Shown one piece after another: positions 560 through 20,111 of a stretch of DNA of 64,000 nucleotides; within the stretch, counting starts at the first letter, position 1, and the number at the start of each line of letters is the position of its first letter. The stretch is from positions 186,001-250,000 of the forward strand of contig CAJAQB010000013.1 of assembly GCA_903943975.1 (NCBI GenBank), written 5' to 3'. The position numbers and the translations under genes are program-made. The notes under the pieces were generated by a model. It did not search any database and had not been told where the DNA came from. It worked only from the letters and a program-made list of their open reading frames with translations. Source of the stretch: Synechococcus lacustris. GTDB taxonomy: Bacteria > Cyanobacteriota > Cyanobacteriia > PCC-6307 > Cyanobiaceae.

Positions 560-3136
560 ATGCAGATCTTCAGTCGCTGGTCTGAGTCCCAGGCGCGTCT
601 CGTGCGCTGGGTGCTGTTGATTGGCTGGTTGTTGATCATCCTTTCGCTGCTCCTGCCGCTCTCGATGCCAGAAAACCTGGTGCCGGAATGCTCGGCTGGC
701 AATTTGCATTGCCTGTTGCACCATCAGCCGGGAAATCGCCTGTTTTGGGGCGTGGTGGTGCCCAGTGGTGTGTTGATGATCGTGCTGCTGAGCCATGAGC
801 TTTGGCGCCGCATCTGTCCCCTCGCTTTCGTCTCCCAGCTGTTCCGGGCCCTTGGTCGCCAGCGCACCCGGCTTGGCAAGGGGGGCAAGCCCGAGGTGGT
901 GAAGGTGGCCACGGATTCCTGGTTGGGTCGCCACCACGTGCAGTTGCAGTGGTCGTTATTGATTGCGGGCCTGTGTCTACGCCTGTTGGTGGTAAACAGC
1001 AACCCCTTGGGCTTGGCCCTGTTTCTGCTGGTAACCCTGGCGGCGGCCCTTCTGGTGGGCTGGGCCTATGGCGGTAAGGCCTGGTGCCAGTACGTATGTC
1101 CGATGGCACCGGTGCAGACGGTGCTCACCGGCCCCCGCGGTCCCCTGGGCAGCCCGGCCCACCTCGGGACCAATTCAAAAATCACCCAGTCGATGTGCCG
1201 CAGCTTGGGGGATAGCGGTAAGGAACAGAGCGCCTGTGTGGCCTGCCAGGCCCCTTGCCTCGATATCGATGCCGAGCGGGCCTTCTGGCAGAACCTCTCG
1301 GGCAAACGGGGTCTTGATTGGGCCTGGTATTCGTATCCGGGGTTGGTGTGGGCCTTCTTTGAGCTGATGCAGCGCATGGATGGTGGTGCCTCAGCCCAAA
1401 ACGGCGACCTCATCTATCTGCGTTCGGGGCTCTGGGCCTATGACGCCGGTTTACCGGGGCGCGCCCTGGATCGATTGTTTCCCTTCTTGCCATTGCCCAG
1501 CCTGGTGGCAGTGCCCCTGGCGTTGGTGTTGGCCGCCTGGCTGTCTGTGGCCCTGTTCCGGGCGTTGGCCAAGCTGCAGCAACGGCGTTATCTCCGCGAG
1601 GGACGGCGGGAGGCGGCCAGCCTCGCCACTTTCCACACCCGCCTGATCGCCACCTTTACGGCGATCAACAGTTTCTTCTGGTTTGTGGACCCGAGCCAGG
1701 GGGCCTTTGGGCCCCATGGGGGCCAGTTAATTCGTTCCCTGGTGCTCACCGTTTCAGCGATTTGGCTGTTTCGTAGTTGGGGTCGAGACCAGGCCACCTA
1801 TCGCCGGGAGAGCACCAGTGAGAGCCTGCGCCGCCAGCTAAAGGATTTGCCGGAGTTGGCGGCGGCCCTGGATGGCCGTTCGCTCGCAGAACTCTCCCCC
1901 CAGGAGGTGTTCACCCTTGCCAAGGCGATGCCGGCGGTGGGGTTGCAGCGCTCCCGCGAGATCTACCGGGGTGTGGTGGCCGACATGTTGCGCACCGGCC
2001 GTCTGGAACGGGCTGCCGCCCTTTTGCAACTGCAGGATCTGCGCCAAACCCTGCAACTTGAAGATCAGGATCACCACGAAGCGATGCGTTGGCTGGCCCA
2101 GGAGCAGCCCAACCTGTTGCGGCTCGATGCCCGCGAACGCCAGGTGGATGACCTGCGTAGGGAGGCGGTGGCAGAGGCGATCCATGACCTGTTGGCTACC
2201 GCCGGCATGGATCTGCTTGATCCCAGCAATCTCCGCCCAGCCCTGGCGGAACGCTTGGAACAGCTGCGTGCCAGCTGTGGTCTCAGTGGGGAAGGTTGGG
2301 CGGAAATGCTTGAAAGCTTTGGGCCGAAGGGGAACCTCGAGCAGCAGCGGCTCAACCATTTGTTGCTGGAGTGGCAAACCCAGGCAGCGCTACTGACCCT
2401 GTTCCAGCAAGAAGCCAGCAGGGATGCCATGTTGCGCCCCCTGCTGCTGGCCATGGAACTGCGGGTGCAGGGGTTGGCCCAACTGCTCGACCCCCGGCTT
2501 GCGGCCGCGGCGTTGCCGCCCCTGCCGCAGCAAATGGCGGCGGCGGGCAGCCTCGAGCAGGCCTTTGACCTGCTCTGGGAAGACCCAGACCCCGATACGG
2601 CCGGTTGGGTGCTGATGTTGGAGCGGCAGCGGCACCCCGAGCGCCTCGCCCGCCGCTTGCAGCATCCCCGCCAGGGCCTGGCCAGTTCGCCTTTCTTGGA
2701 GATCCAGCGCCGGGGGGAACCCCACCCTGATACCGCTGAGTTCCCATTCCTGGCGGCGTCGCCTTTGTTTGCCGATCTACCGCCGGCGGGCCTGGTTTGG
2801 GTGGCTAGCCAGGGCGAGATCCATGCTTGGCAGCCCGGGGAGGTGGTGGTGCAGGAGGGGGCGATTAGCGATGGCTTGGGGGTGGTGTTGGCCGGTTCCG
2901 GCAGGGTCAACATCCCGACTGGGGCACTGGTGATCCTCGGGCCCGGTGAAACGATTGGGGAGATGGGTGTGATCACTGGCAACCCCCGCAATAACACTGT
3001 GAAAGCGGGCCCTGAGGGGCTGAAGGCATTCCAGGTGCCGCGCGAATCCTTTGAGGAACTGCTGCATCGCTCCCGTTATTTTTCGCGGGGCCTGCTGCGG
3101 CAGTTGGCGGAACGGCTCACTGCAACCAGCCGCTAA
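560..3136 (+). CDS. NapH/CcoG-like Fe-S membrane protein with C-terminal cyclic-nucleotide-binding domain
   Basis: A protein of 858 residues. The N-terminal third has several hydrophobic segments and two cysteine clusters: WCQYVCP near residue 175, then CRSL followed by CVACQAPC near residues 214-233. This is the arrangement of NapH/NosR/CcoG-type membrane polyferredoxins and suggests 4Fe-4S binding next to the membrane. A long Leu/Gln/Arg-rich helical region follows. Residues about 735-858 form a cNMP-binding (Crp-like) domain with IGEMG (Glu801) and NPR (Arg810), the positions that hold the cyclic phosphate and ribose in cAMP-binding domains. The redox partner is unknown. The 3' end overlaps the convergent MscS gene by 20 bp. 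The start is ATG; no other likely start is visible. Confidence 0.75.
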   Translation: MQIFSRWSESQARLVRWVLLIGWLLIILSLLLPLSMPENLVPECSAGNLHCLLHHQPGNRLFWGVVVPSGVLMIVLLSHELWRRICPLAFVSQLFRALGRQRTRLGKGGKPEVVKVATDSWLGRHHVQLQWSLLIAGLCLRLLVVNSNPLGLALFLLVTLAAALLVGWAYGGKAWCQYVCPMAPVQTVLTGPRGPLGSPAHLGTNSKITQSMCRSLGDSGKEQSACVACQAPCLDIDAERAFWQNLSGKRGLDWAWYSYPGLVWAFFELMQRMDGGASAQNGDLIYLRSGLWAYDAGLPGRALDRLFPFLPLPSLVAVPLALVLAAWLSVALFRALAKLQQRRYLREGRREAASLATFHTRLIATFTAINSFFWFVDPSQGAFGPHGGQLIRSLVLTVSAIWLFRSWGRDQATYRRESTSESLRRQLKDLPELAAALDGRSLAELSPQEVFTLAKAMPAVGLQRSREIYRGVVADMLRTGRLERAAALLQLQDLRQTLQLEDQDHHEAMRWLAQEQPNLLRLDARERQVDDLRREAVAEAIHDLLATAGMDLLDPSNLRPALAERLEQLRASCGLSGEGWAEMLESFGPKGNLEQQRLNHLLLEWQTQAALLTLFQQEASRDAMLRPLLLAMELRVQGLAQLLDPRLAAAALPPLPQQMAAAGSLEQAFDLLWEDPDPDTAGWVLMLERQRHPERLARRLQHPRQGLASSPFLEIQRRGEPHPDTAEFPFLAASPLFADLPPAGLVWVASQGEIHAWQPGEVVVQEGAISDGLGVVLAGSGRVNIPTGALVILGPGETIGEMGVITGNPRNNTVKAGPEGLKAFQVPRESFEELLHRSRYFSRGLLRQLAERLTATSR

Positions 3137-4607
3137 ATAGACGGCGCATCCGTTCCATCAGGTCTTGTTGCTGGGCGGAGGCAGCTTCTGATTCCAGATT
3201 GTTGATTTCCGCTTGGCGTTGGCTCACTAGCTGGCTGAAGCTATCCAGCAGGCTGGGATCCTCCTGCAGCAGGGCCGCCATCGCCTCGCGTTTGATCTCC
3301 AGCAGTTTTGATTCGCAGGTGGCGCGCACCGTGGCGGAGCGACATTCGCCGGTGCAGAGTGTCATCTCGCCGAAGATTTCGCCGCGGTGCAGTTGGGTAA
3401 TTGTGATTTGACCGCCAGTGGCCAAACGCTTAGTCACCTCCACTTCGCCAGCGCTAACCAGAAACAGGGATTGGCCCTGGTCTCCTTCCCTCACCACTGC
3501 TTCGCCGGGGCCATAGCTATGGCATTGACTGGTTTCAATTAGTTGTTCCAGTTGATTGTCAGCAAGGTTGGCAAAGATCGAGACCTTTTGGAGCAGCTCC
3601 AGTTGTTGGCTGTGGGCGATTGCTTTGCCGTTCTGGTCGTCGCCATCGACCAGGGCAGCGGCCTCCACCATGGCCGTCACCCGCAGGTCTTGGACCGGGT
3701 AGGGGATCGTTTGGCCATGGCGCCGCAGCAGGTACCAGAGTTGTTCCAGCAGGTCGCTGCGCAGGCCCAGCCCCTGGCCATAGTCGGCCTGCCAGGCCAG
3801 CAATTCATAGCGAATTGAGCTGTCATCAAAGGCGGCGATCCGCACCACGGGGGCGGGATTATGGAGTACTAGGGGGTGCTGGCGGGCCAGTTGCAGCAGC
3901 AGTGACTTGGCCTGGGCCGGCGGCAGGTTGTAGTCAAGGCCGATAAATAGTCGGTTGCCATAGGGGCCGTATTGACTGAAGTTGCGCAGGTCCTTGGCGG
4001 TGAGTTGGTTGTTGGGAATATTCAGCTTGGAGCCATCAATACAACGCAGTTCGGTGTCGCGCCAGGTCACGGAGATCACCCGGCCGATATTGCCTTCCAC
4101 CTCGATCCAGTCGCCTTCCTTTACCACCTGCTCCAGCTGCAGGCTGAGGCCGCCGATCAGATCCTTCAGCGGTTCCTGGGCTGCCAAGCCAAAGATCGCC
4201 GTCAGCACCGCTGAGGTGGTTACTAGCCCCAGCAGGTCCACCCGGGCCCGTTGTTGCAACAGCACCACTACCACCAGGGCGCTAACCAGCACCAACAGCA
4301 GATCCCGCAGGATTTTTGGGGTGCTGGGCAGTAGCCGTAGCCTGGGGAACAACTCCAGCACCAGCCAGATCAGCAGCCGCGTGATCGCCACCGCCAGCAG
4401 CAGGTCGTCGGCCATCGCCACAACGATGCGCAGGCTGTGGTTGGCGCCGTTCCAGTTGATGCCGTTGCCCAGCGCCCAGCTCAGCAGGGCCAGGCTGGGC
4501 AGGCGCCAGGGGAAGCTGGGCCAGCGCAGGCGGCTGCAGAGGCGGTTAAGCCCCAGCAGCAGCAGGATCCCAAGGGCTGCAACAATCCAGAACTTGAGGG
4601 CAACCAT
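3117..4607 (-). CDS. MscS-type mechanosensitive channel with cyclic-nucleotide-binding domain
   Basis: A protein of 496 residues. N-terminal hydrophobic helices lead into an MscS core: a pore-helix-like stretch with TSAVLTAIFGLAAQEPLKDL, then the beta domain with EGDWIEVEGNIGRV and WRDTELRCIDG. The C-terminal part (about residues 350-470) is a Crp-like cNMP-binding domain with FGEMTL (Glu414) and CRSATV, which keeps the Glu, Arg and Ser of cAMP pockets. Gating of small-conductance channels by cyclic nucleotides is described for this combined architecture (bCNG-type channels), but ligand and ion selectivity cannot be read here. ATG at 4607 is preferred over an in-frame TTG two codons upstream. 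It is convergent with the Fe-S/cNMP gene. Confidence 0.85.
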   Translation of the reverse strand: MVALKFWIVAALGILLLLGLNRLCSRLRWPSFPWRLPSLALLSWALGNGINWNGANHSLRIVVAMADDLLLAVAITRLLIWLVLELFPRLRLLPSTPKILRDLLLVLVSALVVVVLLQQRARVDLLGLVTTSAVLTAIFGLAAQEPLKDLIGGLSLQLEQVVKEGDWIEVEGNIGRVISVTWRDTELRCIDGSKLNIPNNQLTAKDLRNFSQYGPYGNRLFIGLDYNLPPAQAKSLLLQLARQHPLVLHNPAPVVRIAAFDDSSIRYELLAWQADYGQGLGLRSDLLEQLWYLLRRHGQTIPYPVQDLRVTAMVEAAALVDGDDQNGKAIAHSQQLELLQKVSIFANLADNQLEQLIETSQCHSYGPGEAVVREGDQGQSLFLVSAGEVEVTKRLATGGQITITQLHRGEIFGEMTLCTGECRSATVRATCESKLLEIKREAMAALLQEDPSLLDSFSQLVSQRQAEINNLESEAASAQQQDLMERMRRLFSGWLQ

Positions 4608-4665
4608 GGGCAAGGGTGGTATTGCCAGTCATCCTGACGGCAGACTTTGCTGATGCAAACCAGGA

Positions 4666-5010
4666 ATGACTGGGCCGATGGAACTGTTTGACCTGTTTCT
4701 GATGTTGGCCATGGGCCATTTCCTTGGCGACTTTGGCCTGCAGAGCAACCGCATGGCCAAGGAGAAGTGCCCTGGACCCGGCCATTCCTTGCCCTGGGGC
4801 TATTGGCTCACGGCCCACGGGGCTATCCATGGTTTGATCGTGGCCTTGCTCACGGGGGTGCCGTTGCTGGGGTTGGCGGAATGGCTAGCCCACATGCTGA
4901 TTGATTGGGGCAAATGTCGCGGCTGGTATCAGCTGCTGCCTGACCAGGGCCTGCATCTGTTCTGCAAATTGCTTTGGACCCTGGCCTGCCTATTCCTGCT
5001 GCCCCGCTGA
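4666..5010 (+). CDS. DUF3307 family small membrane protein
   Basis: A protein of 114 residues with three hydrophobic stretches. The N-terminus has GHFLGDFGLQSNRMAKEK, the hallmark of DUF3307 (D, Q and K/R in a loop after the first helix). A central AHGAIHGL and an LIDWGKCRG segment also fit the family. Function is unknown. It ends one base before the ATG of the Crp/Fnr regulator, so the two are probably co-transcribed. An internal ATG at 4678 is an alternative start. Confidence 0.75.
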   Translation: MTGPMELFDLFLMLAMGHFLGDFGLQSNRMAKEKCPGPGHSLPWGYWLTAHGAIHGLIVALLTGVPLLGLAEWLAHMLIDWGKCRGWYQLLPDQGLHLFCKLLWTLACLFLLPR

Positions 5011-5011
5011 C

Positions 5012-5701
5012 ATGGCCCTATCCCCCCTTTCCCCTGGGCAACTGCAGGCCCTGCCGTTGTTTCAGAGCCTGGATCGCCCGGATCTGGAGCGGCTGTTGGA
5101 ACGGCAGCTGCATACGGCGATTGCCACTGATCAGTTGTTGGTGCAGGAGAACGACTGGGGTGAAACCCTGTTTGTGATCCTTGAAGGCTTGGCGAAGGTG
5201 CGTTGCCATAGCTCCGAGGGGGAGGAGGTGGTGTTGTCTTTATTGGGGAAGGGGGATGTGTTTGGCGAGTTGGCCCTGCTGGACGACAAGCCCCGTTCCG
5301 CCGATGTGTTGGCGCTCACTCCGCTCAGCCTGGTGAAGTTGCCGGGGGGGGTATTCCGCCAGTTGATGCTCAGCCGACCGGCCCTGGCCCTGGCGATCGC
5401 CCAGCTGGAAAGCAAGCGGCTGCGCGAACTAAACCGTCGCTTTGTGATTCATTCCGCCGATGCCACCACCCGGTTGCTCAATGCCCTGGCGGAGTTGGCC
5501 CGCCACAGCGCCGGTGGCCAGGATGTGTTGGCCCTGATCCCCCCCCTGGCCCAGCGGGAGCTGGCGGCCCTGGCGGGGCTCTCCCGGGAAACCACCTCCC
5601 GCACCCTCAGCAAGTTGCGGGAGCGCGGTTATCTACAGGAAGAGGGGGGGGGCCTGCGTTTGCTCAGTCTTGAACCCCTGCGGAAACGCTGTTTGCTCTA
5701 G
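5012..5701 (+). CDS. Crp/Fnr-family transcriptional regulator
   Basis: A protein of 229 residues. Residues about 15-115 form the sensor beta barrel with FGELALLDDKPRSADV; Glu86, Arg95 and Ser96 match the cyclic-nucleotide-contacting residues of Crp. A long dimerisation helix follows (VKLPGGVFRQLMLSRP onward). The C-terminal winged helix-turn-helix, around LAQRELAALAGLSRETTSRTL, is the DNA-recognition motif. There is no cysteine cluster for an Fe-S centre as in FNR. It directly follows the DUF3307 gene with one base between. An ATG at 5012 is chosen; the frame is open upstream but that stretch only reads through the DUF3307 gene. The likely ligand is cAMP, which is inference from the pocket residues and the nearby cyclases. 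Confidence 0.88.
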   Translation: MALSPLSPGQLQALPLFQSLDRPDLERLLERQLHTAIATDQLLVQENDWGETLFVILEGLAKVRCHSSEGEEVVLSLLGKGDVFGELALLDDKPRSADVLALTPLSLVKLPGGVFRQLMLSRPALALAIAQLESKRLRELNRRFVIHSADATTRLLNALAELARHSAGGQDVLALIPPLAQRELAALAGLSRETTSRTLSKLRERGYLQEEGGGLRLLSLEPLRKRCLL

Positions 5702-5779: not shown

Positions 5780-6403
5780 ATGCATCTGATCCCGAATCCT
5801 TCCATGGTGAAGTTGCCCCAAGCGCTCTTGGCACTGGCTTTGCTGGTTGGTGGGGGGCCCTTCCCCGCTCCCAGCCAGGCCCAACAGGCGTCGTCCAGCC
5901 AATTTCCGGGCCGCCGGGTGGGTGGGGGCACCCGCGGTGAGTGCACCTCCCGCTTGATCGCCCATCTGCTGCCCGCCTCAAACATTCAAGGGGTGGCCCA
6001 GGGCAAGGCCCCCCGCATTGCCCTGCTGGAGGGCCCTGCGGCCCAAACCTATCCGTTGTTGCTGAATTTGCAGGGGCTGCGCTCCTATCAGTTGGAGCCC
6101 ATGGCAGCCGGGGTGCGCTTGCTCACCCTGCCGCCGCTGGCCTCCGAGACCCGCTGGGAAAGTTCCTTCCTCTGCCCTGGGGCAGCGGGGGCCTCTGGTG
6201 ATCCCTTGGGCTTTGTGACCACCGCCTCGCCGCCGGCCCTCAGTTTGATTCGGCCGGGCCAGCCCGCTGGGCCGCTGCTGGATCGACTGGCGGCCAGCTG
6301 TGGCGCCACCGTACCCACAGCAGAATTGAGGGCCGTGCTGGGGGGAGATCCCCTGCCCGGTGATTGGCCGGAGCAGCTGCCGGTGCGTTGTCAGCAGCTC
6401 TGA
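5780..6403 (+). CDS. DUF928 family exported protein
   Basis: A protein of 207 residues. A signal peptide (hydrophobic core LALALLVGGG, cleavage near SQAQQ) is followed by RRVGGGTRGEC, the signature of DUF928, a cyanobacterial family of unknown function. Three or more cysteines in the mature part (SCGAT, RCQQL, LCPGA) may form disulfides. AGG upstream of ATG 5780 supports that start; ATG 5804 would give a tighter signal peptide. DUF928 genes often sit with CHASE2 cyclases, haemagglutinin-type exoproteins and CHAT proteins, as here. The 3' end overlaps the convergent cyclase by 13 bp. Confidence 0.75.
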   Translation: MHLIPNPSMVKLPQALLALALLVGGGPFPAPSQAQQASSSQFPGRRVGGGTRGECTSRLIAHLLPASNIQGVAQGKAPRIALLEGPAAQTYPLLLNLQGLRSYQLEPMAAGVRLLTLPPLASETRWESSFLCPGAAGASGDPLGFVTTASPPALSLIRPGQPAGPLLDRLAASCGATVPTAELRAVLGGDPLPGDWPEQLPVRCQQL

Positions 6404-8250
6404 TTGTCGTTTGCGATTAATTCGTAGACGTTGACGGTTTGATCCCGACCTTTGAGCGGGAAATCCCCCCAGTTGTTGAGGGGCCAATCCTTGGCTTCCA
6501 CCAACTCAAGGGTGGTTTCAGAAACCAGTACCCGACAATCACTATCCATCCGTTCTTTCTCTAGGGATTCCAAGCGGGCGCTCACATTGACCACATCGCC
6601 GATCACGGCGTATTCCATCCGTTCGCTGCTGCCCATCGAACCGGTGATCACCTCGCCGCTGTGGATCCCCACCCGCAAGCGCAGGATCGGCCGTTGTTCT
6701 GCCAGCAGTTCTTTCTTTAATTCTGCCACCGCCCCCTGTAGGGCCTGGCCGGTGGCTATGGCGTTGGTGGCGGTCTGGCGGGGGTCCTGGGCCACGGGCA
6801 CACCAAATACCGCCAGGAAGCCATCGCCGGTGAATTTGTTCACCATGCCTCCGTGGCGATGGATCAGCGGCACAAACAGTTCCATGCCCCTGTTTACCCA
6901 CTGGAGCGTGTCGGTGGGCGGCAGCCGTTCAGATACCTTGCTGAAGCCAACGATGTCGGCGAAAAGGATCGTTACGGCTAGTTGTCGGCCGGGAAAGCGC
7001 CCTTCCTCGAGCAGGGTTTCCCGTTGTTTCCAGAGTTCAGCGGCCACCTCAGGGGAGGTGGTTTGGCCTAGGAGCCGTTCGATTTGGCGCCGTTGCAGTT
7101 GGCTCGCCGCCCCCCGCCGCAACCAGCCGGCGGCCGTCAACACCGCCAGGCTGGCGGCGGGCAGGCTCACTGCCAGCCAATAGCCGTTTAATAGCAGTCC
7201 AAAGCCGAGGCCGAGCAGGACTATTTCCCCGATTAGCAACAGCCAGCCACTACGTCGCAGCGCCTGGGCCGCTTCGCCGATGGCGATGCCGGCCCCTATG
7301 GCCAGCAGCAACAGCAGTCCTTCCGCCCAGCTGGGGAGCGCCTCCATCTGGAATTTCCCGCCGGCCTCCAGATCCACTAGGGCTGCGAGCCGATGGCCAT
7401 GCACCTCCACCCCGGGCATGGTGGCGAGGCTGGCGGCGCTGCTGAAACGGGTGAAGGGGGTGTTGAAGCTGTCGCGCAGGGAGGCGGCCGTACTGCCGAT
7501 TAGCACCAGCGAACCTTTGATCTGCGCCGGCGGAATTTGGCCGTTCAGTAGTTGCGTCAGGCTCCAGAGCGGAAAACTGCCGGGCTGGTGGAAGGCCAGC
7601 ATCCGTTGGCGACCGGATGCATCCACCTGGCTGTAGCCGCCAGAGCTGGCTTGTAGCCATTGTTGCCGTAATGGCTCCTTGTTAAAGCGCTGGCGCAGTT
7701 TGGCATGCCCCTGGGCCACCTCCAGTAGCCGTAGGGGCAGGGCCAGGCTGTTTTCCGGTTGGCCATCCACATGCACCAGGTCCCGGCGCAGCACCCCATC
7801 GCCATCCACCACCAGATCGTTGAAAGCCTGTTGCCGGGCTGGGGTAGTGGGCGGAGCTGGGATCGCCTCAGCGGCGTTGAAGATCGCTACTACCTTTGGG
7901 TTACGGCGCAGCTCTTGCCTCAGTTCTTCGGCGCCTGGGCCCATCCCCCGGTCGCGGTAGAGGTCGATGCCGATGGCTAAGGCCCCATCGCGGCTCAGTC
8001 GCTGAACCGCCTGGCTGAGCAGGTGATCGTCTAGGGGCCAGCCATAGCGGCGGATATCAGCTTCATCAATGCCAATCAGTCGCACCGGGGTGCTGCGGCC
8101 GGAGGGGGCAGCCCGCAGATTCAGGCTCACGTCATAAAGCAGCAGGTTGAGGGTTTCGCTGATGCCACTGGCACTGAGTCCCGCCAGCACAAGGAAGCCG
8201 ATGCCATAGGGGCTGAGAACGGCAACCAGGGCTTTCCAACGGCGGGCCAT
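6391..8250 (-). CDS. CHASE2-domain class III adenylate/guanylate cyclase
   Basis: A protein of 619 residues. An N-terminal membrane helix precedes an extracytoplasmic CHASE2 sensor domain (about residues 40-300, with DYSQ-free but typical LIGIDEADIRRYG and GSLVLIGSTAASLRD motifs). Three further membrane helices follow (about 305-375), then a cytoplasmic class III cyclase domain (about 420-600). Metal-binding Asp residues lie in FADIVGF and GDGFLAVFG. Lys in NKFTGDG is the usual adenine-specifying residue. The partner position in YAVIGDVVN is Ala, where the second cyclase here has Thr. VNVSAR supplies the transition-state Asn and Arg. It lies three bases after tpsB on the same strand, so the pair is probably an operon. 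Confidence 0.9.
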   Translation of the reverse strand: MARRWKALVAVLSPYGIGFLVLAGLSASGISETLNLLLYDVSLNLRAAPSGRSTPVRLIGIDEADIRRYGWPLDDHLLSQAVQRLSRDGALAIGIDLYRDRGMGPGAEELRQELRRNPKVVAIFNAAEAIPAPPTTPARQQAFNDLVVDGDGVLRRDLVHVDGQPENSLALPLRLLEVAQGHAKLRQRFNKEPLRQQWLQASSGGYSQVDASGRQRMLAFHQPGSFPLWSLTQLLNGQIPPAQIKGSLVLIGSTAASLRDSFNTPFTRFSSAASLATMPGVEVHGHRLAALVDLEAGGKFQMEALPSWAEGLLLLLAIGAGIAIGEAAQALRRSGWLLLIGEIVLLGLGFGLLLNGYWLAVSLPAASLAVLTAAGWLRRGAASQLQRRQIERLLGQTTSPEVAAELWKQRETLLEEGRFPGRQLAVTILFADIVGFSKVSERLPPTDTLQWVNRGMELFVPLIHRHGGMVNKFTGDGFLAVFGVPVAQDPRQTATNAIATGQALQGAVAELKKELLAEQRPILRLRVGIHSGEVITGSMGSSERMEYAVIGDVVNVSARLESLEKERMDSDCRVLVSETTLELVEAKDWPLNNWGDFPLKGRDQTVNVYELIANDNQSC

Positions 8251-8253
8251 GGT

Positions 8254-9864
8254 TTAAAAGCGCAGTTTGAACTGGGTGTAGAGCCCTTTGCTGAGCAGCC
8301 AGTCGTTCCAGAGTTCCTGCTGTTCCGTTTGAAAAGGGGAGACCCAGCCGATTTCCAGGCTCCATTGGTTGCCTTGCAACCAGCGCCCCAGGATGCCGCC
8401 GGAGCCGGCGGTGTCTTGAAAGAATGTCCCGTTGCGTTCACTCTGCACGCCGCCGGCGCCGATGAAAGGCACTAGCTGGAAACGGTTTTTGGCCCCTTTC
8501 CATGCCGTCCATACCAGTTCAATATTGCCAAGATAGCCGTTGTCGCCACTTACCAATTGACCTGGTAAGCCGCGGAGGCCGGCATCACTGCCCAGGGTGA
8601 AGCCCATGTCGCTGGTGAGTTCAGCTAGGGCCAATTGGGTGGCTCCCCGTAGGTTTATTTGTAGCCTGGATTCAGGGGCCCAACTGGCTGCGAGTACGGC
8701 TCCAATGGCCCGGGCTTCGCCAGGGTAGATGCCTACCTGACCCAAGGCGTTCTGCTGATGGGGGGTGGACAACCCGGCCAAGCCCTGGAGGCCATAGATG
8801 TTGCCGCCCCAGGCTATGGAACCGTTATTGCCATTGAAGCCCAGCCCGGCCCGCAGGAAGCCGGTTCTCAGCCAGCCGTAGTCCCCACCGCCAACGATTA
8901 GCGGGATTGAGCGGCCATCGATGAATACATCGTTGCGGTTCACGCTCAGGCCAGCGAAGGCATACCACTGTTGATCCAGGGTCTCGGCAAGGCTCCAGTT
9001 CAGCTGGCCGTAGCCCTGCAGCTGACGGTAGGAGAGCCCATGCAGTGGTTGATCCACCTCCACCAGTTGGCGACGGCTGAGGCCAAAGGCGCTGGTGAGG
9101 CTGAGCCCATCAGTAAGGGGCGCTGTGTAGCTGATCGAGCCAAGCATGTAGCCGACCTCTGGATTGTTGTCTGAATCCAGTTCGCCATAGAGGAGCAGAT
9201 TGTCGTTGCTGTTGAACAAGCCTCGTTTCTGAACGGCGAGCAAACCGCGGGCTTCGCCGGTGCCTGGGTTGCCATCATTGCGAAGGCTTAGTTCTCCCTG
9301 GATCGGATTCTGGGCGGGGATAACCACCAGATTCAGCACGGCCCGGGTGGGATCACTGCCCAAGCGCCCGAGGCTGGCCTTTACAGAGGCCACCTCTGCT
9401 TGCTGGCGCAGTCGCAACAGCGCTGTTTCAAGGCTGGGGAGATGCAGGGGGCCTTGTTGTAGTGGCGCCAACAGCCGTCGCACCCGTTTAGAGAGGCTGG
9501 GGTCGCTGCACTGAACCCGTACTTCCACAAGCTGCCCCTCCACCACCTCGAGGCGACCGGGGGGCGGGCTGGTTTCCACATAAACCTTGGAGTTCACATA
9601 GCCGTCGGCCACGAACTGGGCGGTGAGGGCGGCCGCACAGGCGTTCAGCTTTGCCAGGCGATCCTGCTCTTGGCTGCAGGAGCCGAGCATTTCCTCCAGG
9701 GCCTCAGGGCTGTAGTGGATTGGCCCTTTGATCTCCGGACTTAGCTGCGGCGCAGGGCCTGGCGCGGGCTCTGGGCTTGGCCGTTCGAAGCTTGGTGAGG
9801 AGGGGAGCCGCACGGGGCCGGGCTGGAGGGCCGGGTCCACCAGCTGAGCCAACAGCCAGAGCAT
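8254..9864 (-). CDS. TpsB-type (ShlB/FhaC/HecB) outer-membrane secretion protein
   Basis: A protein of 536 residues. After an N-terminal leader and a Pro-rich stretch, residues about 60-200 contain the POTRA-type periplasmic repeats with GYVNSKVYVE and LEVVEGQLVEVRV. The rest is a beta barrel with alternating strands and a terminal Phe (TQFKLRF), the outer-membrane insertion signal. Members transport one exoprotein (TpsA) across the outer membrane and need no ATP. The divergent gene 86 bp away is an obvious TpsA, which strongly supports the role. The CHASE2 cyclase follows after three bases. Confidence 0.9.
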   Translation of the reverse strand: MLWLLAQLVDPALQPGPVRLPSSPSFERPSPEPAPGPAPQLSPEIKGPIHYSPEALEEMLGSCSQEQDRLAKLNACAAALTAQFVADGYVNSKVYVETSPPPGRLEVVEGQLVEVRVQCSDPSLSKRVRRLLAPLQQGPLHLPSLETALLRLRQQAEVASVKASLGRLGSDPTRAVLNLVVIPAQNPIQGELSLRNDGNPGTGEARGLLAVQKRGLFNSNDNLLLYGELDSDNNPEVGYMLGSISYTAPLTDGLSLTSAFGLSRRQLVEVDQPLHGLSYRQLQGYGQLNWSLAETLDQQWYAFAGLSVNRNDVFIDGRSIPLIVGGGDYGWLRTGFLRAGLGFNGNNGSIAWGGNIYGLQGLAGLSTPHQQNALGQVGIYPGEARAIGAVLAASWAPESRLQINLRGATQLALAELTSDMGFTLGSDAGLRGLPGQLVSGDNGYLGNIELVWTAWKGAKNRFQLVPFIGAGGVQSERNGTFFQDTAGSGGILGRWLQGNQWSLEIGWVSPFQTEQQELWNDWLLSKGLYTQFKLRF

Positions 9865-9950
9865 CGATGATCTATCTCACAGAACGCTGTGATTCTGCTC
9901 ATTCCTGTCAGATTGGCCCCCAATCAAGTTGGAATTTTCCTGGGTTCCCC

Positions 9951-12900
9951 ATGTCATCCCCGTGCCACCGATTGCTGTTGCTCCTGGCTGGTTTGGGCTC
10001 GCTGCCGCTGGGCATGGTGCCGCTGAGGGCCCAGGTGCTTCCTTCCACGGGGTTTCGGGATCTGGGCACCACCGTTAGCGGTGGCTCTGCGGCGGTGATC
10101 CAGGGGGGAACCCAACGGGGGGGCAACCTCTTCCATTCCTTTCAGCGGTTTGATCTGCCGCCTGGTTCATCGGCCAGTTTCGATGGCACTGGCACCTCTG
10201 GGGTGCAGGCGATTTTTGGCCGAATTGAAAGTGGTCCCAGCAAGTTGGATGGCTCCCTGGGGATGAAGAATTGGCAGGGGGGAACCCCCCACCTCACCTT
10301 GATGAATCCCTTTGGATTCATTGTGGGCTCAACGTTCTCCACCAGTGGGGTGCCTGGCCTGGGGCTGCTGGCCGTTGATTCACTGATATTTACAAATCCA
10401 TCCACTGGAGCCCTGTTTTCGTTTGATCAAAACATCAGCAAATCAGGCCTGATGGTGACCAATCCGGATTGGTCAGCGGCAACGATGGTGGGGTTGGGGA
10501 TGGATGCCAATGCCCCCCAGGGGAAGGGGGGCGGACCAGTCACGATTGCGGCACCCCTGCAGATTCCCCGGCTTGAATTGGCGGGATCCACAGTCAACCT
10601 TGACGCCAATGTGATCAAGGCTGACAAGTTCAAGGTGTTGGCCCAGGGGTTCAATGGGGTCACGATGACGGCTGGGACCAAGGTTGCGGCGACAACAGCT
10701 CCCTCCAGTACCACTCCCTCCACTACGACTGTCACCACTGCGACTGCCACCAGTGGGCTTCCGGTGGCGCTGCCGGGCTCTTTTGATCCCGCTACGGGCA
10801 CATTTGTGCCTTTTACCAGCGCCTCCCAGGTGGGAGGCGCGGCCCCGGAATCAGGGTTCTTGCGCACCTCTGCCGACTGGGGCCGAACGGACCCTGATTG
10901 CGGCGCCAGCTGTGCCCCAGGCACCATTCGACTTGGTTCACGGCTGGAGCCGCTGACTGGTACCAGCGCAGATTTTATTTTGGCTGGTAGATCGGTGGCG
11001 GTGGTTCCCCAGGGTGCCCCAGCAAACAGCACCGCCCCGGTCCCTGTCACCAACGCTTCGGTCAGCTCCTTCGGCAATGCTCTCGGTGGCGGTTTCTATC
11101 GCTTAAATGGAACGATTGACACGCCATTAACCAATCCAACGCCACAGGCTGCGCCCCCAGCAACGACTGCTGCTTCAGCATCAACTCCACCACCAATATC
11201 AGTGGCAACGCCCCCAGCAACGCCGACCCCCATCCCCGCTGCCACTACTACCCCAATATCGTCACCGGTTAGCAATACTGCTCCAGCGACGACTACTGCT
11301 TCAGTAACTACACCTGCGCCTACGCCAACAACAACTACGCCAATAACTACATCATCCCAACCGACACCGCCCACTCGTACAGCAACATCAACTCCAGCTC
11401 AGACGCCTGCAACCACTTCGGGCCCCGTCGAAAATAATCAGTCCCCACGCCAACCTCAACCTCAGCCCCAGCGTCAGGCAGCCCGCAGCGGGGGTTCCGC
11501 GCCGGCCCCGGCCCCTGCCCCGGCGTCAGCTCCCGTGGCCCCAGCTCCCGCCCCCGCCGCCCCTGTTGCAGCCGCCGCCGCCGCTGCCCCCGCCGCTGCT
11601 CCGGCTCCCGCCGGCCGCGCCCCTGCTCCTGCTGGCCCCGCTGCTGCGGCCCCGCCGCCGCCGCCTGCCCCTGCACCGCCCACTGCCGAAAGGATGTCCT
11701 CACCCCAGGCGGCAGCCAATTTTGAGCGATCCGAACAAAGCAGTAGCGAGCAGGTGGCCCTGGCCCTAGGGCTTAGCCAAACCAACGCGGGCCTAGCCCC
11801 GAGCACGGCCCAGGTGCAGAGTGGCCTACGGGAGGCGATCGCCGCGGTGCGCAATGGGGGCGGCCAGCGCAGTGCCGCTGATCTGGAGGGCCTGGGCCTA
11901 CGGGCCAGTGCCAACCCCACTGCCTCCCTCGGCAGTCCCATGCCTGCCTTCAACCGCAATGCTTATAACCCGGCGGTGTTGCACCTGCGCTATGCAGCGG
12001 CAGCGGCTAACTCAGCCTTGGAGGGAGCCGATGCCCATCTAGATCTGGTGTTGATCAGTGCCAACGGCGAACCCCAGGGGTTGCGTCTACCCCTGCGCCA
12101 GGCCGACTTCCGCGAGGCCCTGCAACGCCTCTATGGGGCGCTGTCCCGCCAGGAACCGTTGCAGGTACAGGATCCCTCCTCCCCAGCCCGCAGCCTCTAC
12201 CGCCAGATCTTTGCCCAGTTGCAACCGCTGTTACAAGCGCAGCGCATCACCACCCTGCTGATCAGTGCAGACCAGGGCCTGCAGGCGATCCCCTACGCCG
12301 CCCTGCACGATGGCGAGCAGTTCCTCGGGGAACGCTATGGCCTTTCGCTTACCCCCTCCCTGAACCTCACCAACCTGCAGGTGCCCCTGGGTAAGGGCGG
12401 TGAGTTGTTGGCCCTAGGGGCTTCCCAATTCCAGGGGTTAGCGCCCCTGCCCTTGGTGCCAGAGGAACTGCGGGCGGTGGCGGCGGGCCAGAAGGCTGAA
12501 ATTCATTTGAATGGGGCCTTTACGCCTGCGGCCTTGTTGGTGTCTGCGGCGGAACCGCGCTTCCGGCGGGTGCATGTGGCCACCCATGCCGAATTCCTGC
12601 CCGGTGGGCCGTCGCAATCGCGGCTTTACACCGGCGAGGGGCCGATTCCCCTGCGGGATTTCGCCTCCCTGCGCAGTCGCCGCCAAGACAATCCCCTGGA
12701 TCTGATCAGCCTCAGTGCCTGCCGCACCGCCCTCGGTGATGCCGACAGCGAACTGGGCTTTGCGGGCCTGGCCCTGCAGGCCGGTGCCCGCAGTGCGATT
12801 GGCAGCCTCTGGTATGTGGATGATGTGGCCACGTCGGCCTTTTTCGTGCAGACCTACCGGCACCTGGAGGCTGGCATCCCCAAGGCGGAGGCGTTGCAAC

Positions 12901-13076
12901 TCACCCGCCAGGCCTTCTCCCGCGGCTTGATCCGGCTGGAGGCAGACCAGGTAGTGGGCGCCAATGGGGAGGTGTTGTTGGCCGGCCTTAATCCCTCCCA
13001 GCGGCGCCTGGCCGCCACGGGCCTAGGCCACCCCTACTTCTGGGGAGGCATCCAGCTCTTGGGCTCCCCCTGGTAG
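9951..13076 (+). CDS. TpsA-type exoprotein: filamentous-haemagglutinin N-terminal domain fused to CHAT protease domain
   Basis: A protein of 1041 residues. A signal peptide (LLLLLAGLGSLPLG, cleavage near RAQ) is followed by the TPS secretion domain with GNLFHSFQRF and NPFGFIVG, then a beta-helix stretch. Residues about 383-583 are a low-complexity Thr/Pro/Ala linker. The C-terminal third is a CHAT domain (caspase-like clan) with catalytic His879 in HVATHAEF and Cys924 in LSACRTALGD, and the typical ending HPYFWGG. ATG 9951 begins the signal peptide; the frame is open upstream but that region holds the divergent tpsB start. Probably exported by the adjacent TpsB. The 3' end overlaps speA by 54 bp. 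Substrate unknown. Confidence 0.88.
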   Translation: MSSPCHRLLLLLAGLGSLPLGMVPLRAQVLPSTGFRDLGTTVSGGSAAVIQGGTQRGGNLFHSFQRFDLPPGSSASFDGTGTSGVQAIFGRIESGPSKLDGSLGMKNWQGGTPHLTLMNPFGFIVGSTFSTSGVPGLGLLAVDSLIFTNPSTGALFSFDQNISKSGLMVTNPDWSAATMVGLGMDANAPQGKGGGPVTIAAPLQIPRLELAGSTVNLDANVIKADKFKVLAQGFNGVTMTAGTKVAATTAPSSTTPSTTTVTTATATSGLPVALPGSFDPATGTFVPFTSASQVGGAAPESGFLRTSADWGRTDPDCGASCAPGTIRLGSRLEPLTGTSADFILAGRSVAVVPQGAPANSTAPVPVTNASVSSFGNALGGGFYRLNGTIDTPLTNPTPQAAPPATTAASASTPPPISVATPPATPTPIPAATTTPISSPVSNTAPATTTASVTTPAPTPTTTTPITTSSQPTPPTRTATSTPAQTPATTSGPVENNQSPRQPQPQPQRQAARSGGSAPAPAPAPASAPVAPAPAPAAPVAAAAAAAPAAAPAPAGRAPAPAGPAAAAPPPPPAPAPPTAERMSSPQAAANFERSEQSSSEQVALALGLSQTNAGLAPSTAQVQSGLREAIAAVRNGGGQRSAADLEGLGLRASANPTASLGSPMPAFNRNAYNPAVLHLRYAAAAANSALEGADAHLDLVLISANGEPQGLRLPLRQADFREALQRLYGALSRQEPLQVQDPSSPARSLYRQIFAQLQPLLQAQRITTLLISADQGLQAIPYAALHDGEQFLGERYGLSLTPSLNLTNLQVPLGKGGELLALGASQFQGLAPLPLVPEELRAVAAGQKAEIHLNGAFTPAALLVSAAEPRFRRVHVATHAEFLPGGPSQSRLYTGEGPIPLRDFASLRSRRQDNPLDLISLSACRTALGDADSELGFAGLALQAGARSAIGSLWYVDDVATSAFFVQTYRHLEAGIPKAEALQLTRQAFSRGLIRLEADQVVGANGEVLLAGLNPSQRRLAATGLGHPYFWGGIQLLGSPW

Positions 13077-18242: not shown

Positions 18243-20111
18243 CTAAGCGGGTCGGAACACTGGTACGGGGCCCATGCCCTTGATCGGTTGTTCCCCCAGG
18301 GCTTGCACCGGCAGATTGGCCTGCACCAGTTCGGCGGTGCGGCCGTTAAACAACACCGGGGTGTTGAGGCTGCGGGTGAGGCTTTCCAGCCGGCTGGCCA
18401 GGTTCACCGTGTCACCGATCACGGTGAAATCCAGCCGCTGGGGGCTGCCGATTTGGCCCACCACGGCATCACCACTGGCGATGCCCACGCCACTGGCGAG
18501 CGGGGCGGTGTTTTCGCTGTGCCATTGCTGGTTTAGCTGCGTTAGCCGCTGGCCCATGGCCAGGGCACAGCGCACCGCCTGCTCAGCTTCCTCGGCGGTG
18601 CCGCGGCTGCGGGGGGAGCCAAACACCGCCATCACCGCATCGCCGATGAATTTATCCACCGTGCCCCCATGGGCATTGATCACCTCCACCATGGCGCCCA
18701 GGTAGGTGTTCAGTTGCTGCACCAGGTCGGCGCTGCGGCCCTCCTGGGAGCGCTGTTGGGTGAGGGCAGTGAAACCCTTCAGGTCGCTGAATAGCACCGT
18801 TACCGGCAGGGTGCGCCCCCGCAGGATCCCCTCGGCCGCCTCGCGGTCTTGGAGGATTTCCGCCACCACGGCCGGGGCCACATAGCGCTCAAAGGTGCGC
18901 CGCAGCCGTCGCCGTTCCCGTTCCTCCCGCCAGTAGCCGTCGAGGGCTAAACCACTACCCAGCAGCAGCAGGCTGCCGGCGGGGGCCAGCAGCGGCAGGC
19001 TGCGGTGGCCCAGCCAGAGCCCACCGCTGGCGCTGCCCACCAGGGCCACCAGGCCCAGCACCGACCAGCCCAGCCGCCAACGCAGCCCCGGACCAGCCAG
19101 GGCCAGCAGCCCGATCGCCAGCACCGGCAGCCCGCCGGCCAGGGCCCGGCCCCAGGCGGGGCGCGGCCAGGGGGCGAGGCCGGTGCCGTCGAGGGAATTG
19201 GCGGTGGCGGTGGCCATCAGCTCCACCCCAGAGAGCGGACCAAAGGCGGTGCTGTGGCCACTCTCCCCCTGTTCCAGGGTGGGGCCAATCAGCACCAGGG
19301 CGCCCTTGAGCTGGCCCTTGAGCGGATGCTGGGCCCAGCGCTGGGGATCAAGCACCTCCCAGGCGGAGAGCCGTGGCAGCTGCCCCTCCGGCCCATAGGG
19401 CCGCAGGTTGCGTTCGGCATCGGCCTGGTGGCTGCGGAGGCCAGCGGCCTGGAGGAGCGCCGTGGGTAGCGACTGGCGCAATGGGAAGTGATGGGGGGCC
19501 AGCACCCGGGTGCCATAGGCCTCCGGGTGGGGGCCCACCTCGGCGTCTTCCCCCAACAACATGTTGGTGAGACCGAGACGCTGGCCGCCCCCCACTGCCT
19601 GTTGAAGTAGCGCTAATGGCGGGCTGAGGCTGAGGCCCCCTGCCCCCTGGCGGTCCTCCGGTTCGAGCATTTCGGCGGCCAGCACCACCCGCCCCCGCTG
19701 ACGTTGCAGCTCCCGGGCTAGCGCTTGGTCATCCCCTGGCCCATGGCTGCTGGGCCCCTCAAACAGCAGGTTCACGGCCACGGCCCGGGCGCCGGCGGCC
19801 CGCAGTTTGCTGATCAGTTCTGCATAGCTGCGCCGCGGCCAGGGCCACTTATCTATCCCCTGGCTCCAGGCCGGCGGCTGGGCCTGTTGGCGGAACCATT
19901 GGCCCTGTTGCAGGGAGGCATCATCCACCGCCACCACCAGCACCCCCGCCGGGGGCCTCTGGGGGCCCGCCAGGCTGAGCAGCTGACTTTGCACCTGTTG
20001 GCCCCAGCTGCGCCAGAGCGGCGGCGGCCAGCCGCTCGCCAGGCCACTGAGGCAGCCCAGGCCGATAACAAAGCCCACCAGGGCGGTGGAAGGGCGGCTT
20101 GGTTCGGCCAT
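18243..20111 (-). CDS. Second CHASE2-domain class III adenylate cyclase
   Basis: A protein of 622 residues with the same layout as the cyclase at 6391-8250. It has an N-terminal helix, a CHASE2 sensor (VVAVDDASLQQG; LKGALVLIGPTLEQGESG), three membrane helices (about 310-380) and a cyclase domain. FSDLKGF and GDAVMAVFG supply the metal-binding Asp residues. DKFIGD has the adenine-specifying Lys and DFTVIGDTVN the matching Thr, so an adenylate cyclase with standard specificity is expected. VNLASR completes the active site. It follows a FecR-domain gene on the same strand by 25 bp, a common cyanobacterial pairing. Convergent with gatB. Confidence 0.9.
   Translation of the reverse strand: MAEPSRPSTALVGFVIGLGCLSGLASGWPPPLWRSWGQQVQSQLLSLAGPQRPPAGVLVVAVDDASLQQGQWFRQQAQPPAWSQGIDKWPWPRRSYAELISKLRAAGARAVAVNLLFEGPSSHGPGDDQALARELQRQRGRVVLAAEMLEPEDRQGAGGLSLSPPLALLQQAVGGGQRLGLTNMLLGEDAEVGPHPEAYGTRVLAPHHFPLRQSLPTALLQAAGLRSHQADAERNLRPYGPEGQLPRLSAWEVLDPQRWAQHPLKGQLKGALVLIGPTLEQGESGHSTAFGPLSGVELMATATANSLDGTGLAPWPRPAWGRALAGGLPVLAIGLLALAGPGLRWRLGWSVLGLVALVGSASGGLWLGHRSLPLLAPAGSLLLLGSGLALDGYWREERERRRLRRTFERYVAPAVVAEILQDREAAEGILRGRTLPVTVLFSDLKGFTALTQQRSQEGRSADLVQQLNTYLGAMVEVINAHGGTVDKFIGDAVMAVFGSPRSRGTAEEAEQAVRCALAMGQRLTQLNQQWHSENTAPLASGVGIASGDAVVGQIGSPQRLDFTVIGDTVNLASRLESLTRSLNTPVLFNGRTAELVQANLPVQALGEQPIKGMGPVPVFRPA

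What the first reader, a model, noticed from the sequence alone, without database searches (positions are those of the whole stretch)
5780..13076. Two-partner secretion locus with CHAT exoprotease, CHASE2 cyclase and DUF928
The exported partner ends in a CHAT domain with His and Cys in place, next to its TpsB and a sensor cyclase in the same cluster as TpsB. Export of a caspase-like protease by two-partner secretion, coupled to a cyclase sensor, would be a distinctive extracellular proteolytic system.
Basis: partly seen in the sequence, partly recalled or inferred. Interest (0 to 1): 0.75.

Follow-up and report, generated by a model that had tools for sequence, protein, structure and literature searches.

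The report
Surface protein with built-in caspase-like protease
A freshwater cyanobacterium carries a conserved gene cluster that pairs a secreted surface protein, its outer-membrane exporter and a cell-envelope sensor enzyme with a caspase-like protease that is either fused to the surface protein or, in relatives, made as a separate exported protein, which suggests that the protease processes the surface protein in the envelope rather than digesting things outside.

Summary
The anatomy is right. At 9951-13076 lies an exoprotein with signal peptide, TPS domain, Pro/Ala/Thr linker and C-terminal CHAT (His879, Cys924; the genome's only CHAT). Divergent from it are TpsB and, 3 bp behind, a CHASE2-class III cyclase with a full catalytic set. 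"DUF928" is below Pfam's threshold but profile-related. The cluster is conserved across 17+ Cyanobiaceae genera, and its pieces are linked in other cyanobacterial families.

The interpretation needs changing. In about half of the Cyanobiaceae loci CHAT is a separate gene directly downstream of tpsA, usually with a 4-bp overlap, and each intact one has its own signal peptide (cytosolic controls: none). The switch fused/split happened at least five times. All forms share export across the inner membrane, not TpsB-dependent secretion. Three of the genome's eleven cNMP-binding genes sit beside the cyclase.

Best reading: an envelope protease, co-made with TpsA, that retains or releases it (as LapG does for CdrA), wired to cAMP signalling. 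Anatomy and linkage are solid; protease activity, substrate and cAMP control are inferred. No paper found describes it.

The parts
9951..13076 (+).
9951..10031 (+). signal peptide (MSSPCHRLLLLLAGLGSLPLGMVPLRA)
   Evidence: read from translation; hydrophobic stretch and A-x-A-like end
10071..10331 (+). TPS secretion domain (PF05860), with NPxG-type motif NPFG at residues 119-122
11133..11690 (+). low-complexity Pro/Ala/Thr linker between the exported part and CHAT (up to 38% Pro in 60 aa)
11685..11855 (+). helical motif (in split relatives this is the C-terminus of TpsA) modelled together with CHAT
12183..13067 (+). CHAT domain (PF12770, 169.8 bits); catalytic His879 (codon 12585-12587) and Cys924 (codon 12720-12722)
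8254..9864 (-). TpsB outer-membrane transporter (POTRA_2 + ShlB barrel, C-terminal Phe), divergent from TpsA
6391..8250 (-). CHASE2 sensor + class III cyclase; metal Asp432/Asp476, Lys472, Asn555, Arg559 present; 3 bp downstream of tpsB
5780..6403 (+). small exported protein with signal peptide and 4 invariant Cys, remote relative of DUF928; tail-to-tail overlap with the cyclase; Ig-like beta sandwich predicted
4901..5701 (+). CRP/FNR-type regulator with cNMP-binding domain (candidate cAMP effector)
3117..4613 (-). MscS-type channel with C-terminal cNMP-binding domain (candidate cAMP effector)
560..3136 (+). membrane protein with Fer4_5 and C-terminal cNMP-binding domain (candidate cAMP effector)

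Best explanation
The locus encodes a two-partner-secretion surface protein with its own dedicated envelope protease. TpsA goes through the inner membrane by its signal peptide and is threaded by TpsB, N-terminus first. The C-terminal CHAT domain, which would have to be unfolded to pass TpsB, stays or acts in the periplasm. There it holds the C-terminus of TpsA and, when activated, cleaves TpsA (or another envelope protein) and so releases or matures the surface protein. In many relatives the same CHAT domain is a separate protein with its own signal peptide, probably made from the same mRNA and probably binding the helical C-terminus of TpsA. The CHASE2 domain senses something in the periplasm and its cyclase makes cAMP, which acts on the neighbouring cNMP-binding proteins (CRP-type regulator, MscS-type channel) and so adjusts expression or envelope state. 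Shown by sequence: the architecture, the intact His/Cys and cyclase residues, the signal peptides, the fused/split alternation, the linkage. Inferred: protease activity, periplasmic site of action, TpsA as substrate, cAMP as the product, and any control of the protease by the cyclase.
For: CHAT His/Cys are invariant in 54/54 and 55/55 sequences, including other cyanobacterial families. CHAT is fused in 17 and separate in about 25 Cyanobiaceae loci. Every intact separate CHAT of this clade has an N-terminal signal-peptide-like segment 50-90 aa before the domain, scoring 1.4-3.2 and mostly above 2; speA and CRP controls score at most 1.25 or nothing, and membrane-anchored cyclases mostly 2.4-3.5. 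At least 5 fused/split changes on the tree. The separate CHAT start codon mostly overlaps the tpsA stop by 4 bp. The split TpsA ends with the helical motif that precedes CHAT in the fused protein. AlphaFold models motif plus CHAT at pLDDT 87, pTM 0.90. The best structural matches span the motif as well and are Csx29/TPR-CHAT (Z 29, 332 residues, 3.1 A) and separase (Z 25). Cyclase metal, transition-state and Lys residues are conserved in nearly all of 38 sequences. Three of 11 cNMP-binding genes of the genome lie within 6 kb of it, and 18 of 30 family cyclase genes have MscS-cNBD or CRP within 10 kb. Precedent: the TpsA adhesin CdrA has a periplasmic C-terminal tail cut by the protease LapG under c-di-GMP control (PMC5422565), and the FhaB prodomain is retained in the periplasm and processed there (PMC8263021).
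Against: No biochemical data. Signal peptides were called by a simple hydropathy rule, not SignalP. A fused CHAT could still be secreted whole. No cleavage site in TpsA could be identified. The Pro-rich linker is present in only 10 of 17 fused and 9 of 22 split proteins. Docking of the motif on CHAT rests on one AlphaFold model without inspection of contacts. The cyclase is not within 20 kb in some relatives, and no consistent CRP-type site was found in the tpsB-tpsA promoter region across the family.
Confidence: 0.42

Rival explanations
1. One reading: TpsA-CHAT is a secreted exoprotease that digests extracellular proteins, with the cyclase as its sensor.
For: TPS domain and CHAT are in one polypeptide beside a TpsB; TPS-CHAT fusions are common in other cyanobacterial families; a TPS-secreted protease, LepA, exists (PMC5422565).
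Against: In about 25 relatives CHAT has no TPS domain and only its own signal peptide, so TpsB export of CHAT is dispensable; the CHAT clade is under one narrow constraint in both forms.
Confidence: 0.2
2. Inward signalling: CHAT in the periplasm cuts the periplasmic CHASE2 domain (or the DUF928-like protein), so that contact or damage at the surface sensed through TpsA switches the cyclase and raises cAMP.
For: Strong gene linkage of CHAT, CHASE2 and DUF928; CHASE2 lies between transmembrane segments and so faces the periplasm; cNMP effectors are adjacent; CHAT-like and CHASE2 domains also occur in one polypeptide.
Against: The CHAT-CHASE2 fusions lack the His and Cys motifs and have CHAT on the presumably cytoplasmic side; linkage gives no direction; no cleavage site is known.
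Confidence: 0.17
3. Contact-dependent, polymorphic-toxin-like system: CHAT is the C-terminal toxin delivered to neighbours, the DUF928-like protein its immunity partner.
For: C-terminal position on a TPS exoprotein; caspase-like domains occur as processing peptidases and as C-terminal toxins in polymorphic toxins (PMC3482391).
Against: The C-terminal domain is not exchanged but stays the same CHAT, mostly 44-61% identical to the window protein across genera; separate CHAT genes with signal peptides do not fit delivery by TpsA; the DUF928-like gene is paired with the cyclase, tail to tail, in most loci.
Confidence: 0.08
4. Independent neighbours: cyclase, cNMP-binding genes and DUF928-like protein are a separate signalling island next to an unrelated TPS locus.
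For: In some relatives cyclase and TpsB are 10-20 kb apart or on different contigs.
Against: Cyclase and TpsB lie within 20 kb at 23 of 34 family TpsB places by the coordinates, often co-directional with almost no gap; class-wide TPS-CHASE2 and TPS-DUF928 linkage is 7- to 9-fold above a uniform expectation; one distant genome has all four genes in a row.
Confidence: 0.13

Closest known systems
LapG-CdrA adhesin release (Pseudomonas aeruginosa)
   Same: A TPS adhesin, a periplasmic protease that acts on its C-terminal tail, cyclic-nucleotide control (PMC5422565)
   Different: LapG is not a CHAT protease and its gene is not fused to cdrA; control there is by c-di-GMP; here a CHASE2 class III cyclase and cNMP-binding proteins are linked, and control is unproven
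FhaB/FhaC of Bordetella
   Same: TPS exoprotein with a C-terminal part that stays in the periplasm and is proteolytically processed (PMC8263021)
   Different: Proteases (DegP, CtpA, SphB1) are encoded elsewhere; [quoted passage not shown]
TPR-CHAT / Csx29 of Craspase, and separase
   Same: Same protease fold with preceding helices; Z 29 and Z 25
   Different: Cytoplasmic or nuclear, activated by RNA or securin loss; no sequence match at E 0.01; here exported and joined to a TPS protein
LepA of Pseudomonas aeruginosa
   Same: A protease that is itself a TpsA (PMC5422565)
   Different: Not reported as a CHAT protease; the sequences were not compared here
Polymorphic toxins with caspase-like releasing peptidases
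   Same: Caspase-like domain near the C-terminus of an exported protein (PMC3482391)
   Different: No variable toxin domain follows CHAT and CHAT is conserved, not exchanged

Membership tests
TpsA (two-partner secretion exoprotein) | TPS domain (PF05860) above cutoff | tested here: met
   48.5 bits against 33.5; TIGR01901 25.2 is below its 29.1
TpsA (two-partner secretion exoprotein) | signal peptide and cognate TpsB gene next door | tested here: met
   signal peptide read at 9951; TpsB 8254-9864
TpsA (two-partner secretion exoprotein) | secretion through TpsB | not testable with these tools
   needs fractionation
TpsB | POTRA and ShlB-type barrel profiles, C-terminal Phe | tested here: met
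   (F in 32 of 33)
CHAT protease (clan CD) | PF12770 profile with catalytic His and Cys | tested here: met
   169.8 bits; His879, Cys924 invariant
CHAT protease (clan CD) | caspase/separase-type fold | tested here: met
   Z 29.3 to Csx29, 25 to separase, 12 to caspase-6
CHAT protease (clan CD) | proteolytic activity | not testable with these tools
   no assay
CHASE2 class III adenylyl cyclase | both metal Asp, Asn/Arg, purine Lys | tested here: met
   D432, D476, N555, R559, K472; second purine position is Ala, so cAMP rather than cGMP is likely but not proven
DUF928 (PF06051) | Pfam gathering score | tested here: not met
   no match at E 1 for P0004, none to DUF928 in 21 homologues
DUF928 (PF06051) | profile relationship to true DUF928 | tested here: met
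   hhalign E 2.7e-8 over the RRVGGGTRG motif; HMM E 9e-7
CDI / polymorphic toxin | exchangeable C-terminal toxin domain | tested here: not met
   same CHAT in all
CDI / polymorphic toxin | immunity gene | tested here: inconclusive
   DUF928-like gene nearby but linked to the cyclase
Lap-type adhesin release | LapG/LapD homologues | not tested
   not searched; analogy only

The most novel reading that the evidence does not exclude
A TPS system that encodes its own processing protease: a separase/Craspase-like cysteine protease, fused to or co-translated with TpsA, docks on the helical C-terminus of TpsA in the periplasm and works as anchor and release switch of a surface fibre, wired to a CHASE2-cAMP circuit; widespread in cyanobacteria, including picocyanobacteria with very small genomes.
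Probability: 0.3. Interest if true: 0.75.

Novelty: new variant of a known kind. Interest (0 to 1): 0.55.

Why it matters
CHAT proteases are best known inside cells (Craspase, separase). Here a large cyanobacterial group of them is exported and tied to two-partner secretion. The recurrent fusion and fission with signal peptides retained gives a sharp, testable claim about where and on what they act. TPS loci are said not to carry their own maturation proteases; this would be the exception. It also gives CHASE2 and DUF928, widespread cyanobacterial envelope domains without known role, a shared context with cAMP effectors.

Tried and rejected
A conserved CRP-type operator between tpsB and tpsA: the window and its same-genus relative have 8/10 and 9/10 matches (shuffle p 0.055 and 0.015), but 27 loci together show nothing (mean p 0.63). 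CHAT-CHASE2 fusion proteins as proof of a CHAT-to-CHASE2 cut: they lack His and Cys. A known fold or function for the DUF928-like protein: only generic Ig-like matches, best Z 6.9. Apparent separate CHAT in the nearest relative (L002/L206): contig end, not a split gene. Solved relatives of CHAT by sequence: none at E 0.01. DdvA, a transmembrane anti-sigma factor, is a structural match (Z 19.7), but the paper I tried for it is not held. Full P0001 whole-genome searches failed twice on the server, so the CHAT part alone was used. Literature: ten searches found no paper on this cluster; one mentions a CHASE2 gene near a DUF928 gene in a Nostoc genome (PMC5587647).

Full report
Source. The window is part of a 2.47-Mb cyanobacterial genome (G000:C13:186001-250000). 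Its nearest named relative for this gene is Synechococcus lacustris.

Check of the observation. Pfam confirms CHAT and TPS in the exoprotein, ShlB/POTRA_2 in TpsB and CHASE2 plus class III cyclase in the third gene. The real start of the exoprotein is ATG 9951, with a signal peptide; counted from there the catalytic residues are His879 and Cys924. It is the only CHAT gene of this genome. The protein called DUF928 has no Pfam match at E 1, and 21 homologues have no DUF928 match. It is nevertheless a remote relative: it shares the FPGRRVGGGTRG.C motif with a true PF06051 protein (hhalign E 2.7e-8), and that protein sits in the same cluster in another cyanobacterial family.

Neighbourhood. Upstream of the DUF928-like gene lie three genes with cNMP-binding domains: a CRP-type regulator, an MscS-type channel and a Fer4_5 membrane protein. 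The genome has 11 such genes in all, so three within 6 kb of a cyclase is far above expectation (about 0.04 per 8 kb). In the family, 18 of 30 cyclase genes have an MscS-cNBD or CRP gene within 10 kb. The cyclase keeps both metal Asp, the Asn/Arg pair and the adenine-type Lys. tpsB ends 3 bp before the cyclase gene begins on the same strand; the cyclase and the DUF928-like gene overlap tail to tail, here and in most relatives.

Conservation. TpsB relatives occur in 33 of 151 Cyanobiaceae genomes from 17 genera, the cyclase at high score in a similar set, and CHAT in 71 of 300 genomes from 19 genera. By coordinates, 28 of 34 TpsB places have a CHAT match and 23 of 34 the cyclase within 20 kb (my count; several of the rest are at contig ends). 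In ten genomes of other cyanobacterial families, TPS and CHAT lie within 10 kb in 29 of 45 cases (3.0 expected), DUF928 and CHASE2 in 23 of 46 (1.5), TPS and CHASE2 in 11 of 45 (1.5), TPS and DUF928 in 10 of 45 (1.1) (expectation assumes uniform spread). Locus L169 holds CHASE2-cyclase, DUF928, TPS-CHAT and TpsB in a row. The cluster is therefore old in cyanobacteria.

The key result: fused or split. In 17 Cyanobiaceae loci TPS and CHAT are one polypeptide; in about 25 the CHAT domain is its own gene. The intact separate genes of this clade all carry an N-terminal signal-peptide-like segment; cytosolic controls speA and CRP do not. Most start within the stop codon of tpsA (4-bp overlap) and are thus probably translationally coupled. 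The tree puts all of them in one clade (100/100) and needs at least five changes between the forms. A distant genome shows the same with a longer CHAT protein whose start overlaps tpsA by 4 bp (L209). So the protease domain is kept outside the cytoplasm and next to TpsA, but passage through TpsB in the same chain is not needed. This argues for the periplasm, or the periplasmic face of TpsB, as the common place of action.

The TpsA C-terminus. Split TpsA proteins end in a conserved helical stretch (A..tA.kLGL...ptp.qlq..Lr..i..v); in the window protein the same stretch lies before CHAT. AlphaFold (31 sequences, pLDDT 87, pTM 0.90) models it confidently with CHAT. The best solved matches, Csx29/TPR-CHAT (Z 29.3) and separase (Z 25), span this stretch too, so it seems to replace the helices that precede the protease domain there. 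It is a plausible docking element for the separate CHAT; contacts were not inspected.

Mechanism. By analogy with CdrA-LapG, where a periplasmic protease cuts the C-terminal tail of a TPS adhesin (PMC5422565), and FhaB, whose prodomain stays in the periplasm (PMC8263021), I propose that CHAT anchors and, on a signal, cleaves TpsA. The CHASE2-cyclase would report an envelope signal through cAMP to the neighbouring effectors. Whether the cyclase controls CHAT, or CHAT the cyclase, is open.

Novelty. Ten literature searches found no description of the cluster. The parts are known families; their combination, the exported CHAT clade and the fused/split alternation appear new. I file it as a new variant of a known kind.

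Noticed in passing
18243-20111 (-): A second CHASE2-type cyclase gene in the window (phmmer E 7e-40 to the first); relatives such as L111 also have such paralogues in a row near the cluster.
   Followed up: no
6391-6403: Convergent 3' overlap of the cyclase and the DUF928-like gene; most relatives overlap by about 44-50 bp at the same place.
   Followed up: partly
9877-9892: Perfect inverted repeat TCACAG-N4-CTGTGA in the 86-bp space between tpsB and tpsA; not conserved family-wide as a CRP-type site.
   Followed up: partly
9814-9864 (-): TpsB proteins of the family start with a strongly conserved ML-LLAQLV-P-LQ-GPVRLP and no ordinary signal peptide; how they reach the outer membrane is unclear.
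   Followed up: no
L207, L208, L209, L210: CHAT-like domains fused in front of CHASE2, without the His and Cys motifs, three of them beside a DUF928 gene: degenerate CHAT in a signalling role.
   Followed up: partly
L111 and L125, end of TpsA: Two Cys near the C-terminus of the split TpsA (C-x10-C and C-x8-C), reminiscent of the cysteine hook that anchors other TPS adhesins.
   Followed up: no
560-3136 (+): Membrane protein with a 4Fe-4S (Fer4_5) segment and a C-terminal cNMP-binding domain, an unusual combination.
   Followed up: no
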